Shown: one piece after another, positions 1,942 through 39,110 of the stretch | Numbering within the stretch: the first letter of the stretch is position 1 | Layout of the letters: each line of letters starts with the position of its first letter | Assembly: GCF_031199965.1 (NCBI RefSeq) | Contig: NZ_CP133605.1 | Location: forward strand, 5,313,001 to 5,377,000 | Direction: 5' to 3' | DNA length: 64,000 bases | DNA from: Paenibacillus sp. D2_2 | GTDB lineage: Bacteria > Bacillota > Bacilli > Paenibacillales > Paenibacillaceae | Made by a program: the position numbers and the translations under genes | The notes under the pieces: generated by a model | What the model saw: the letters and a program-made list of their open reading frames with translations, nothing else | Databases searched by the model: none | What the model was told of the DNA's origin: nothing

Positions 1942-2107
1942 GTTCGAAAAGGCCGATTTTCAGCACCGAGAAGGTTGGATGAAGCTAGGGACAGAGGAGC
2001 GGAGTGTACGTAGTTTGTACATAAGCATCAGAAGGCCCGGCTGAATTCAAGATTCGATGCCGAGTTACTTCTTGATTCACTTCGTGATCAAAGTGGACTT
2101 TTTGAAT
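1942..2107 (+). repeat. Structured ~167-bp repeat, copy 1 (upstream of gdhA)
   Basis: One of three full-length copies in this window (others at 27277 and 38943). It starts GTTCGAAAAGG and ends GGACTTTTTGAAT; the two ends pair as a long imperfect stem. Inside, TGTAC/GTACA forms a hairpin at about 2005-2022, and a 3' hairpin TTGATTCAC-TTC-GTGATCAA lies at about 2082-2101. The core GGCCCGGCTGAATTCAAG is shared with the other copies. It ends 30 bases before the gdhA start, just ahead of its ribosome binding site. It carries no open reading frame of its own. It could be a mobile MITE-like element or a mRNA leader structure. Confidence 0.8.
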
Positions 2108-2137
2108 TACCCCTATAAAAGAAAGGTGGAATCATTC

Positions 2138-3521
2138 ATGGCTATTATGCAAGAGAAAGCTGAGCCAGGATTGGAATCAGCAAAGCAGTATGTCAACGAA
2201 GTGTATGAAACAGTGAAGAAACGCAATCCGGGAGAGAGTGAATTTCATCAAGCTATCAAAGAAATTCTTGATTCCTTAGTCCCTGTATTTGCGAAGCATG
2301 AAAAATACCGCAACAATGCAATTCTTGAGAGAATCGTTGAGCCAGAACGTCTAGTTTCTTTCCGCGTGCCATGGGTAGATGACCAAGGTAAGGTTCAAGT
2401 TAACCGCGGTTTCCGTGTTCAATTCAACAGCGCTATCGGCCCTTACAAAGGCGGACTTCGCTTCCACCCATCCGTTAATGCCAGCATCATCAAGTTCCTT
2501 GGTTTCGAACAAATCTTCAAGAACTCCCTGACTGGCCAACCAATCGGCGGCGGCAAGGGTGGTTCCGATTTCGATCCAAAGGGTAAATCCGATAACGAAG
2601 TTATGCGCTTCACACAAAGCTTTATGACTGAGCTATCCAGATATATCGGTCCAGATACAGACGTTCCTGCTGGTGACATCGGTGTTGGTGCGAGAGAGAT
2701 CGGTTATATGTTCGGACAATATAAGCGCCTCTGCGGTGGCAATGAAGCTGGCGTTCTGACCTGGCAAAGGCTTAACCTATGGCGGTAGCTTGACTCGTAC
2801 TGAAGCAACAGGTTATGGCCTCGTCTACTTCACAGCTGAGATGCTGAAGTCCAAGGGCGAGAGCTTTGAAGGCAAGACCGTTGTTGTATCCGGCTCCGGT
2901 AACGTAGCAATCTATGCTATCGAGAAGGCGACTCAGTTCGGTGCTAAAGTCGTAGCCTGCTCTGACTCTAATGGATACATTTATGACGAGAACGGAATCG
3001 ATCTTGAGACAGTAAAACGTCTTAAAGAAGTGGAAAGAAAACGGATCAAGGAATACGTTGAGGTTCATCCTTCTGCGCAGTTTGTTGAGGGCTGCCAAAA
3101 CATCTGGGATATTCCTTGCGATATCGCACTTCCTTGCGCTACACAGAATGAAATCGATGAAGCTGCGGCTAAGACGCTTGTAGCTAACGGCTGTAAGTAT
3201 GTAGCTGAAGGTGCAAATATGCCTTCTTCCCTCGAAGCCATCGAAGTCTATCTGAACAACGGAGTCTACTTTGGACCAGCCAAAGCTGCTAACGCAGGTG
3301 GCGTAGCCGTATCCGCGTTGGAGATGGCGCAGAACAGCGCTAGATTGGCTTGGACATTCGAAGAGGTAGACGCTAAGTTGCAAGATATTATGACGAACAT
3401 TTATAACAATAGCGTAAATGCAGCTGTAGAATACGGCCATGAAGGCAATCTGGTCGTCGGCTCCAACATCGCCGGTTTCCTTAAGGTAGCCGACACAATG
3501 ATCGCCCACGGCGTGGTTTAA
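2138..3521 (+). pseudogene. gdhA: NADP-type glutamate dehydrogenase, single-base frameshift
   Basis: Encodes hexameric glutamate dehydrogenase (2-oxoglutarate + ammonium + NAD(P)H to glutamate), about 460 residues when read through. The ATG at 2138 follows AGAAAGGTGG. The N-terminal half has [14 protein letters not shown], the catalytic-lysine segment [17 protein letters not shown] and [17 protein letters not shown]. The C-terminal half has the Rossmann motif VVVSGSGNVAIYA and the typical EGANMPS. An extra T at about 2762 shifts the frame after GVLT, so the two halves lie in different frames; removing it restores [23 protein letters not shown]. Everything else is intact, so this is either a recent mutation or a sequencing error. 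It is flanked by copies of the structured repeat in opposite orientations. Confidence 0.88.
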
Positions 3522-3522
3522 T

Positions 3523-3580
3523 CCACTTTTGATCACGAAGTGACTCAAGAAGCCAATTCGACTTCGAATCTTGAATTCAC
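3523..3580 (-). repeat. Truncated inverted copy of the structured repeat
   Basis: Reverse complement reads TGAATTCAAGATTCG...CACTTCGTGATCAAAAGTGG, matching the 3' third of the full elements. It begins immediately after the gdhA stop and lacks the 5' part and the outer stem. It lies opposite in orientation to copy 1, so gdhA sits between two inverted pieces of the same element. Confidence 0.7.
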
Positions 3581-3585
3581 CATAC

Positions 3586-3630
3586 ATCCCTGATTTCTAG
3601 ACATCCGTCAAAGAGATTAGGGATTTTTTC
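3586..3630 (+). terminator. Terminator after gdhA
   Basis: ATCCCT / AGGGAT stem with a long loop containing further weak pairing, followed by TTTTTTC. Confidence 0.6.
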
Positions 3631-3663
3631 TATAAGAGCTTAACCGCACCATCACAAGCTAGC

Positions 3664-3706
3664 AAGAAAAAAGCTCTGACACAGACTTACGTCTATATCA
3701 GAGCTT
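3664..3706 (-). terminator. Terminator after ndh
   Basis: On the minus strand AAGCTCTGA / TCAGAGCTT with inner pairing of AGAC/GTCT, followed by TTTTTTC. It lies 32 bases past the ndh stop. Confidence 0.85.
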
Positions 3707-37512: not shown

Positions 37513-37533
37513 CCTCTACCGTGGTCATTTCTG

Positions 37534-37595
37534 ACGTTCAGGCAGCAGATGCTGTTCTGCTTGCCTGAACGCTCATCAGCCCTCCCCTTTTTTTA
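37534..37595 (+). terminator. Probable terminator after ald
   Basis: GTTCAGGC-AGCAG / CTGCT-TGCCTGAAC long stem. The seven-T run comes 17 bases later, so it may be an imperfect terminator. Confidence 0.6.
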
Positions 37596-37705
37596 TCAGT
37601 TCTTCCTATGATATATTATTTACATACCCTGCTGGGTATGCCATTAGAGGTAGTTCTACTCTTAATAATATTTCGAATCTCGAAATCTCAGGAGGGATGG
37701 ATTTC

Positions 37706-38752
37706 ATGACACAAGATATCCAGTCAACATCACAATCTACAAGCTTATCCGAGATTCCATTCTCCGTACTGGATCTCGCTCCAATTACCGTAGAAAGCAC
37801 AGCAGCGCAGTCGTTGAAAAATACGTTAGACCTTGCCCAGCATGCTGAGAAATGGGGTTATACCCGCTACTGGCTTGCCGAGCATCATGGCATGCCTGGG
37901 ATTGCCAGCTCGGCGACATCCCTCGTCATCGGCTATGTAGCCGGAGGTACCCAGACAATTCGCGTCGGCTCCGGCGGGGTAATGCTACCTAACCATGCCC
38001 CATTGGTCATTGCCGAGCAATTCGGTACCCTCGAATCGCTGTACCCTGGCCGCATCGACCTCGGTTTAGGCAGGGCGCCCGGATCTGACCAGCTAACTTC
38101 CTACGCCCTACGACGCGGATCTGGCAGCGATGGTCAGGATTTCCCACAGCGACTGCGCGAGCTGCGCGAATACTTCAAGCCTGATTCCCAGTCATCGCTG
38201 CGTGTCCGAGCCATCCCTGGAGAAGGTCTTGATATCCCAATCTGGCTGCTCGGCTCTAGCGGCTTCAGTGCCAGGTTATCTGCGGAGCTAGGCTTGCCAT
38301 TTGCATTTGCCAGTCATTTCGCACCGGATTATCTGCTAGCCGCACTAGAGCTATATCGCAATCAGTTCACCCCCTCAGAGTCGTTACCTGCACCGTACGC
38401 CATGATCGGGGTTAACGTCGTCGTTGCCGATACCGATGCTGAAGCCGAGAGGTTGGCCACATCGCAGGCTCAACAATTCCTCAGCCTGATCCGCAATCGT
38501 CCTGGTCAATTGCGACCTCCAGTGGATGATATGGATTCGATCTGGACCGCCCATGAGAAGGCGCTCTTCGAGAAGCAACGCGCTTATGCAGCTGTCGGCT
38601 CACCTAATACAGTACGACAACGGCTGAACGATATTTGGCAAGAGACGAGAGCCGATGAGATCATCGTGGCCTCGCAAATCTATGACCATTCAGCCCGCCT
38701 ACACTCTTATGAGCTGCTTGCTCATGAAGTCATTGGGATTAAACAGCAATAA
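37706..38752 (+). CDS. LLM-class flavin-dependent oxidoreductase (MsnO8-type)
   Basis: A 348-residue luciferase-like flavin monooxygenase. Motifs are [22 protein letters not shown] (seen as [18 protein letters not shown], residues about 52-69), [19 protein letters not shown] and [14 protein letters not shown], characteristic of the MsnO8/YwcH-like group. These use reduced FMN supplied by a separate reductase; the substrate is unknown. The ATG at 37706 has GGAGGG at good spacing; one nine bases upstream is too close. It is monocistronic, with a terminator at 38781. Confidence 0.85.
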
Positions 38753-38780
38753 TCCCATGCTTTATGACCAGATACAAAGA

Positions 38781-38825
38781 AATGAACGAGCCTCCGCCTG
38801 ATCCGGCGAGGCTCGTTCATCTTTT
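38781..38825 (+). terminator. Terminator after the LLM oxidoreductase
   Basis: AATGAACGAGCCTC / GAGGCTCGTTCAT stem followed by CTTTT. Confidence 0.75.
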
Positions 38826-38942
38826 AACCCATAAAAAAACGTATAATATCAAAAATTTATCGTGATCTTTCAAAATCTCTTTCTACTATAAATGTGGTAG
38901 TATGAAATTTAAGAGGTTCGAGCATTTCTATTTATTAGTGCT

Positions 38943-39110
38943 GTTTAAAAAGTCAGACTTTCAGCACCGAGATGGTTGGATGAAGATAGGGACTGGGAGC
39001 GGAGCGTAGGCAAAACCTACGTGAGCACCGGAAGGCCCGGCTGAATTCAAGATTCGATGTCGAATAAGCTCTCAGTGTTACTTCGTGATCAAAGGGGGAC
39101 TTTTTAAACA
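38943..39110 (+). repeat. Structured ~167-bp repeat, copy 3
   Basis: Ends are perfect 12-base inverted repeats, GTTTAAAAAGTC and GACTTTTTAAAC. The internal hairpin is GCGTAGG-CAAAA-CCTACGT at 39002-39020. Compared with copy 2 the outer stem has C-G replaced by T-A and the hairpin has C-G replaced by G-C, both sides changed together. The 3' hairpin region has diverged (left arm changed around 39065-39080). It lies 73 bases before the ATG of the following SDR gene, in the same orientation. Confidence 0.82.

What the first reader, a model, noticed from the sequence alone, without database searches (positions are those of the whole stretch)
1942..39110. A 167-bp structured repeat with compensatory changes placed just upstream of unrelated genes
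Copies at 1942-2107, 27277-27443 and 38943-39110 share the same length, order and core (CCCGGCTGAATTCAAGATTCG). Their ends pair: GTTCAAAAAGT/ACTTTTTGAAC in copy 2 becomes GTTTAAAAAGTC/GACTTTTTAAAC in copy 3, a C-G to T-A change on both sides. The internal hairpin is TGTAC/GTACA, CGTAC/GTACG and CGTAGG/CCTACG in copies 1, 2 and 3, so two further pairs covary. All three lie in the same orientation as the next gene (gdhA, a membrane protein, an SDR) and end 24-73 bases before its start. The fold is therefore conserved beyond simple sequence drift. Either this is a palindromic mobile element (MITE) that lands between promoter and ribosome binding site, or a structured leader RNA family with a regulatory job. 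I do not know a named family that matches.
Basis: partly seen in the sequence, partly recalled or inferred. Interest (0 to 1): 0.78.

Follow-up and report, generated by a model that had tools for sequence, protein, structure and literature searches.

The report
Mobile structured-RNA repeat of Bacilli
The repeat is a small jumping DNA element, present in well over a hundred copies in this genome, whose body spells a strongly conserved RNA shape; a related shape turns up in distant Bacilli next to ribosomal RNA genes and inside another RNA, so it may be a bacterial counterpart of the RNA-derived mobile elements of animals.

Summary
The three copies are elements of 176, 179 and 178 bp; two have perfect 5-bp target duplications (TATAA, TATTA), one 4 of 5. 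This genome has 159 cores within 3 mismatches, 79 forward, 80 reverse. A close relative has empty sites. So it is a MITE-like mobile element (GTGYGTGTTCAAAAAG..CTTTTTGAACWACCTC, TWWWA target); its transposase was not found.

On a tree of 210 copies, double changes at 47 proposed pairs keep pairing 121 times and break it 20; slid controls give 9:17 to 1:6. A role as leader of the next gene is not supported: orientation 43:28, p 0.096.

Unexpected: a covariance model built only from this genome's order finds elements with the same ends, apical hairpin and duplications in other families of Bacilli. It also finds the core RNA, at lower scores, in other settings: before 16 of 16 23S genes of one genome, in extra 5S-like genes, and inside a T-box-like leader. 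No Rfam family reached its gathering score at the window copies or at the cores tested. Function is unknown.

The parts
1938..2113 (+). Copy 1, 176 bp structured mobile element upstream of gdhA (ATG 2138)
1933..1937 (.). Left target duplication TATAA of copy 1
2114..2118 (.). Right target duplication TATAA of copy 1
27271..27449 (+). Copy 2, 179 bp, upstream of an ORF starting at ATG 27468; covariance model 200.4 bits on +, 29.4 on -
27266..27270 (.). Left flank TTAAA of copy 2 (right flank TTGAA, 4 of 5)
27450..27454 (.). Right flank TTGAA of copy 2
38938..39115 (+). Copy 3, 178 bp, upstream of an ORF that reads like a short-chain dehydrogenase (ATG 39184)
38933..38937 (.). Left target duplication TATTA of copy 3
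39116..39120 (.). Right target duplication TATTA of copy 3
3516..3581 (-). Fourth copy, 5'-truncated (profile positions 105-173), at the 3' end of the gdhA reading frame
10441..10456 (-). Lone 3' end of an element (reads GAGGTTATTCAAAAAG on +)

Best explanation
The repeat is a non-autonomous, MITE-like transposable element that moves as DNA. Its ends (5' GTGYGTGTTCAAAAAG, 3' CTTTTTGAACWACCTC) are recognised by a transposase acting in trans, which inserts it at TWWWA and duplicates 5 bp (duplications and empty sites shown; the transposase inferred). Its body is under selection to fold, as RNA read from one strand, into a closing end-to-end helix, a long internal arm and a conserved apical hairpin (GGAGYGUA-loop-UACRUGAG) (shown by covariation). 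The core of that RNA is a domain shared across Bacilli with spacer RNA before 23S rRNA, extra 5S-like genes and one T-box-like leader (shown by model search; common descent rather than convergence is inferred). The most likely reason for selection is that inserted copies are co-transcribed and the fold gives a self-contained, host-recognised module (a processing or protein-binding site, as in pre-rRNA) that limits damage to the interrupted transcript. That last step is inference.
For: Copy number on both strands. Duplications: 17 of 77 full copies perfect against a shuffled mean of 4.3 (maximum 12 of 1000), excess at the middle three of the five positions (z 3.5, 3.4, 4.1). Empty sites: nfo-purU reads CAC-TATTA[element]TATTA-TTCTATG here and CAC-TAGTA-TTCTATG in G008; the fliJ copy is absent in G008; 5 of 26 aligned rows empty by my reading. 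Fold: 21 of 43 predicted pairs with both-side changes in 38 sequences. Double changes from a paired state, kept:broken 121:20 against 9:17, 2:10, 4:6, 4:4, 1:6 and 3:7 for partners slid by +1, -1, +2, -2, +3, -3; single transitions to G-U versus A-C 62:8 internal and 117:35 terminal, slid totals 113:87 and 199:124. Substitution-shuffling null: 3 of 14,535 column pairs at E<=0.05, all 3 in the structure; 12 of the top 20 in it. Extra hairpin modules at four places. Spread. Same ends in other families, 12 of 23 with identical 5-mers at the fixed register against 1.7 shuffled, maximum 7 of 5000. rRNA, 5S and T-box settings.
Against: No autonomous partner found: no Tn3 transposase in this genome, one DDE_Tnp_1 fragment, no end-bounded element with matching flanks in 1.64 Mb, and in 4.1 Mb only a pair of inverted repeat copies. 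A rate-weighted null leaves 2 pairs below E 0.05 and the uniform null 3 of 47 structure pairs. Slid controls also lean to G-U. Slid pairs start paired less often, so their counts are smaller. Matches outside the order score 29-76 bits except f32, with rough E-values. The T-box match is below Rfam's gathering score (86.8 against 93) and the extra 5S-like genes are 5S-like by my reading only (best Rfam score 23.2, gathering 38). No transcription data. Terminal branches mix change before and after insertion.
Confidence: 0.75

Rival explanations
1. A structured leader RNA family that regulates the gene downstream of each copy.
For: All three window copies lie 18-68 bases before a start codon in sense. 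The fold is selected. One related core sits in a T-box-like leader.
Against: Orientation to the 3'-side gene 43:28 (p 0.096) and 30:22 between co-directional genes (p 0.33). Insertions differ between sister species. At the 17 sites printed the neighbouring genes differ, by my reading. 159 similar cores in one genome.
Confidence: 0.07
2. A plain MITE whose hairpins are only a by-product of inverted repeats, with no RNA-level selection.
For: Target duplications, empty sites and internal-deletion derivatives are typical of MITEs.
Against: Compensatory changes lie also in internal helices away from the end repeats (kept:broken 73:9; four slid controls keep 1 to 3) and the G-U excess there is 20:3 and 52:17. 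The core occurs without these ends in rRNA spacers, 5S-like genes and a T-box-like leader.
Confidence: 0.08
3. The RNA is needed for the element's own movement, for example as a guide, a cofactor of the transposase or a reverse-transcribed intermediate.
For: G-U preference is stronger on internal branches (62:8) than on terminal ones (117:35). End sequence and apical hairpin are kept together in relatives from ten anonymous families.
Against: Fixed 5-bp duplications and inverted ends fit ordinary DNA transposition. The core also lives without these ends. Coreless derivatives of about 35-85 bp share the ends, one (L139) with identical TATAA flanks and others with 4 of 5, so the core may be dispensable for movement; they could also be later deletions.
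Confidence: 0.12
4. The similarity between the mobile element core and the rRNA-spacer, 5S-like and T-box inserts is convergence on a common stem motif.
For: Bits are modest and the middle helices differ. Each context has its own closing stem.
Against: 11 columns are invariant over 22 cores from very different settings, and 4 of 8 hairpin pairs change on both sides; most of these loci were located with a pattern for the hairpin, which favours some of that conservation. In G403 all 16 model matches lie before 16 of 16 23S starts.
Confidence: 0.2

Closest known systems
BOX elements of Streptococcus pneumoniae (passages read in PMC3049150)
   Same: Short dispersed, modular, structured when transcribed, end repeats and target duplications, about a hundred copies per genome (125 in one strain).
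   Different: No BOX sequence was compared here. The RNA core of the present element recurs in many families of Bacilli and in rRNA spacers, 5S-like genes and a T-box-like leader. BOX is over-represented between convergent genes; here only 5 of 69 copies with both neighbours called lie between convergent genes.
bcr1-bcr3 of the Bacillus cereus group (passages read in PMC3446304 and PMC2267715; primary paper not held)
   Same: MITE-like intergenic repeats of Bacilli; 84 of 165 and 62 of 155 bcr copies of two strains were found in transcripts (PMC3446304). bcr1 is 147-167 bp in the table of PMC2267715.
   Different: Genomes G374 and G288 carry 149-bp relatives of the present element but are unnamed.
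TIMEs, Tn3-derived miniature elements (passages read in PMC4133298)
   Same: Non-autonomous, 5- or 6-bp duplications in AT-rich targets.
   Different: Ends do not match the GGGG..TAAG ends found at Tn3 loci of the genus, and this genome has no Tn3 transposase match.
Eukaryotic SINEs derived from 5S, tRNA or 7SL RNA (recalled)
   Same: A mobile passenger carrying a domain of a housekeeping RNA is the analogy proposed here.
   Different: Movement here looks like DNA transposition, not retrotransposition, and the direction of descent between rRNA spacer and mobile element is unknown.

Membership tests
MITE (non-autonomous TIR element) | Terminal inverted repeats | tested here: met
   Of the 14 outer pairs, 8 are standard pairs in at least 90% of 121 copies, the other 6 in 71-89%; the outermost bases beyond them are imperfect
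MITE (non-autonomous TIR element) | Fixed-length target duplication | tested here: met
   5 bp TWWWA; 17 of 77 perfect against 4.3 expected; empty sites
MITE (non-autonomous TIR element) | No transposase of its own, many copies | tested here: met
   176-179 bp in the window, 159 cores in the genome
MITE (non-autonomous TIR element) | Autonomous parent with the same ends | tested here: inconclusive
   None found in 4.1 Mb of fetched loci; whole genomes were not scanned for it
TIME / Tn3 family | 38-bp ends with GGGG start and TAAG inner end | tested here: not met
   Tn3 loci of the genus have such ends; the element's ends start GTG or GAGG
Any Rfam 15 family | Reaches gathering score | tested here: not met
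   0 matches in the window; none at the core positions of the 15 loci given; around copy 1 and in 4 further loci only sub-threshold matches at these positions, the T-box around one core among them
Cis-regulatory leader RNA | Consistent sense position before genes of one kind | tested here: not met
   43:28 and 30:22 orientation; genes at 17 sites differ by my reading
bcr1 | Sequence homology to bcr1 | not tested
   bcr1 sequence not held
BOX | boxA-boxB-boxC sequence modules | not tested
   No BOX sequence was compared; modules here sit at four places of one fold

The most novel reading that the evidence does not exclude
An ancient bacterial analogue of SINEs: an RNA domain of the pre-23S rRNA spacer (also found in 5S-like genes and a T-box-like leader) was captured between transposon ends, and elements of that class have since spread through at least ten families of Bacilli. 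They keep the RNA fold because host RNA-processing or binding machinery recognises it in every transcript they land in, and they sometimes re-enter rRNA operons.
Probability: 0.35. Interest if true: 0.88.

Novelty: new variant of a known kind. Interest (0 to 1): 0.75.

Why it matters
Bacterial MITEs are usually treated as inert DNA. Here a conserved RNA domain occurs in a mobile repeat with more than a hundred copies in a genome and beside or inside housekeeping RNAs of other Bacilli. If confirmed, it gives bacteria a parallel to RNA-derived mobile elements, offers an RNA family without an Rfam match for structural and biochemical work, and makes testable how a repeat can enter transcribed DNA, even rRNA operons, without harm. 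It also warns that repeats in leaders of this group should not be read as site-specific regulators.

Tried and rejected
Tn3 parent: PF01526 in 40 genomes, 8 with a match, none in the window's genome; ends do not match. IS4-type parent: one fragment in the own genome. End-bounded larger element: none in 1.64 Mb; in 4.1 Mb one candidate, which is two inverted copies of the repeat. Plasmid and phage collections: 3 plasmid records and 1 phage record for the Paenibacillus element, none in plasmids for three relatives. Papers: in 10 searches I saw no title or abstract describing this repeat; the 21-base core string itself gave 0 papers. Passages of PMC2229807, PMC5670726 and PMC2864571 were also read and do not mention it. 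Most subscription papers are not in that library. The rate-weighted covariation null was too heavy-tailed to be useful beyond its top pairs. Structure prediction of proteins, homologous-protein search and metagenome scans were not used.
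Full report
WHAT IS THERE. The three copies align over 199 columns at 87% mean identity. The element runs 1938-2113, 27271-27449 and 38938-39115, with direct repeats TATAA/TATAA, TTAAA/TTGAA and TATTA/TATTA. 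A 5'-truncated fourth copy lies at 3516-3581 minus. Rfam has no match at gathering score in the window.

COPY NUMBER. In the 5.75 Mb genome a 29-base core pattern matches 79 times forward and 80 times reverse with up to 3 mismatches, and 0 times when reversed (only its first places are listed). In the 622 kb of own-genome DNA that I fetched, chosen around hits, there are 126 profile matches, 63 on each strand, 87 near full length.

MOBILITY. For 77 full copies (of 118 copies) left and right 5-mers at the model boundaries are identical in 17, against 4.3 in shuffles (maximum 12 of 1000). Excess matching shows at the middle three positions (z 3.5, 3.4, 4.1); the outer T and A are nearly fixed, so both flanks read TWWWA. 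At nfo-purU this genome reads CAC-TATTA[element]TATTA-TTCTATG, and relatives G008 and G003 have an uninterrupted TAGTA (they carry a different remnant nearby); the fliJ copy is absent in G008. From two anchors G008 looked collinear, so I fetched 20 regions: 26 copy rows had both flanks aligned. By my reading 5 are empty (3304278, 3358908, 3865899, 4244756, 4258960), 6 hold another version (one in the opposite orientation, others with an extra module or in tandem), 7 hold remnants or internal-deletion forms, and 8 are unclear. Sites thus turn over between these species.

CONTEXT. Of 77 full copies, 73 do not overlap a predicted gene by more than 20 bases and 4 overlap by 29-57 bases (a simple codon-model gene caller of my own). 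Orientation shows no significant bias (43:28, p 0.096; 30:22, p 0.33). The window's three-of-three sense placement is not typical.

RNA FOLD. RNAalifold on 121 distinct copies gives a closing helix made by the two ends, a long internal arm and an apical hairpin. On 38 diverse copies 21 of 43 pairs include both-side changes. I built a tree of 210 distinct full copies (of 359 matches; partial, long, duplicate or N-containing ones dropped). With 47 proposed pairs, branches changing both sides of a paired state keep pairing 121 times and break it 20 times; partners slid by +1, -1, +2, -2, +3, -3 give 9:17, 2:10, 4:6, 4:4, 1:6 and 3:7. Changes on both sides from an unpaired state (14) were set aside. 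Transitions from Watson-Crick pairs go to G-U rather than A-C 62:8 on internal and 117:35 on terminal branches (45:18 on own-genome terminal branches); slid controls sum to 113:87 and 199:124. Inner helices alone give 20:3 and 52:17. Unpaired columns lean the other way (132:212 on terminal branches). G-U pairs on one strand are A-C mismatches on the other, so the selected molecule is most simply RNA of the element's plus strand. A substitution-shuffling null gives 3 of 14,535 column pairs at E<=0.05, all 3 in the structure but only 3 of its 47 pairs; 12 of the top 20 pairs are in it. A rate-weighted null leaves 2.

MODULES. Longer copies carry extra hairpins at four places: near consensus positions 34-38, 67-81, 94-98 and 152 (whose list also holds misaligned flanks and tandem units). 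In the own-genome DNA fetched, the third kind was seen at 14 places, the fourth at 9, the first at 3 and the second at 1 (by short patterns). Conversely, elements of about 35-85 bp with the same ends but no core exist. Tandem arrays with like spacers occur in relatives; a 5'-truncated unit leads the array in at least 4 of the 11 arrays fetched (L065, L070, L072, L075; profile start 96-112) and at 4 places of this genome (start 105-117). I have no tested explanation for that.

SPREAD. Counts include the own genome. Blastn-level relatives are in 33 of 59 genomes, 3 of 17 genera; named hosts include Paenibacillus, Cohnella and Fontibacillus. The covariance model R1, built from 38 sequences of the order, matches 86 of 198 genomes of the order sample, 16 of 43 genera, and 43 of 299 genomes of the class sample, 18 of 118 genera. 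In 22 genomes followed up many matches are elements with the same ends, other middles and the same apical hairpin; with the window's own family and f9 they come from ten anonymous families (f1, f6, f9, f21, f32, f33, f45, f51, f53, f58; handles checked). Of 26 such loci 23 gave readable ends; at the fixed register 12 of 23 have identical 5-mers, against 1.7 in shuffles (maximum 7 of 5000); two of the 12 are the same insertion. G315 has 80 matches and G458 has 73.

OTHER CONTEXTS OF THE CORE. In G403 the 16 model matches lie just upstream of the 16 of 16 23S 5' ends found; the four spacers read show two sequence types without the mobile ends. In G374 a complete element flanked by TAATA sits in the spacer of 2 of 3 23S loci, and the third has the uninterrupted site, most simply entry into rRNA operons by transposition. 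G227 has the core directly before a 23S 5' end; a second spacer beyond an N gap lacks it. The three own-genome spacers read do not show it, nor do those of G008, G094 and G412. Extra genes with 5S-like 3' parts next to real 5S genes contain it in G297 (two tandem units), G448, G456 and G412; Rfam scores none above gathering, the best 23.2 bits. In G308 it lies inside a stretch matching the T-box leader (RF00230, 86.8 bits, E 3.5e-18, gathering 93) before an ORF that I read as ProB. G300 and G239 have it with other closing stems. In 22 aligned cores 11 columns are invariant and 4 of 8 hairpin pairs show both-side changes; most were located with a hairpin pattern, and the outer helices do not align well. 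These matches score 29-50 bits with rough E-values, so common descent is likely, not proved.

MECHANISM. Shown: mobility with 5-bp duplication, selected plus-strand RNA fold, similar core elsewhere. Inferred: a trans-acting transposase and a benefit of the fold in transcripts. I favour the view that a host RNA-processing or protein-binding module makes insertions tolerable, because a similar module stands before every 23S gene found in G403; a role of the RNA in movement is the main alternative, weakened by coreless minis with the same ends.

KNOWN WORK. From passages read: BOX elements are structured, modular, mobile and transcribed (PMC3049150); bcr1-3 are MITE-like and about half of the bcr copies are transcribed (PMC3446304); stem-loop families are widespread (PMC2267715); TIMEs make 5- or 6-bp duplications (PMC4133298); mobile/repeat structured motifs with strong covariation have been noted elsewhere (PMC11109978). 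None of these passages describes this family.

Noticed in passing
window 2138-3521: gdhA appears split by a frameshift near 2770-2790 (two frames needed); the genome is listed at 93% completeness, so an assembly indel is possible.
   Followed up: partly
L034 (phage record MZ092003.1), 1196-1420: A truncated copy of the element sits directly before a 23S rRNA 5' end inside a record labelled as a phage genome; this looks like a host rRNA operon joined to phage sequence.
   Followed up: no
L065, L070, L072, L075: Tandem arrays of the element whose first unit is 5'-truncated at profile position 96-112; four pairs in the own genome start at 105-117.
   Followed up: partly
L021, L067, L078, L081, L083, L104, L114, L117, L141, L144: A hairpin module of about 112-115 bp (TTAGATATAGAATT..GGTTTTCTT) inserted at one place in the 3' arm of many copies, also in relatives G003 and G008.
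   Followed up: partly
L366 9917-10092 versus own genome 4395769: Sister species carry the element in opposite orientation in the same intergenic region, either an inversion or an independent insertion.
   Followed up: no
L411, L419, L426 (G315): The 23S-proximal spacer holds a fold resembling the core (GAGCGTAA..TTACGTGAAC), duplicated in L411, that the model did not list.
   Followed up: no
L389 1450-2000 (G227): Two 23S spacers, separated by an N gap: one holds the core between two CACAAGCC repeats, the other has one CACAAGCC and no core, as if the core had entered with a longer duplication than the mobile element makes.
   Followed up: no
L383, L388, L390, L391: Extra genes with a 5S-like 3' part and the core in place of the 5' part lie near true 5S genes in genomes of two families.
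   Followed up: partly
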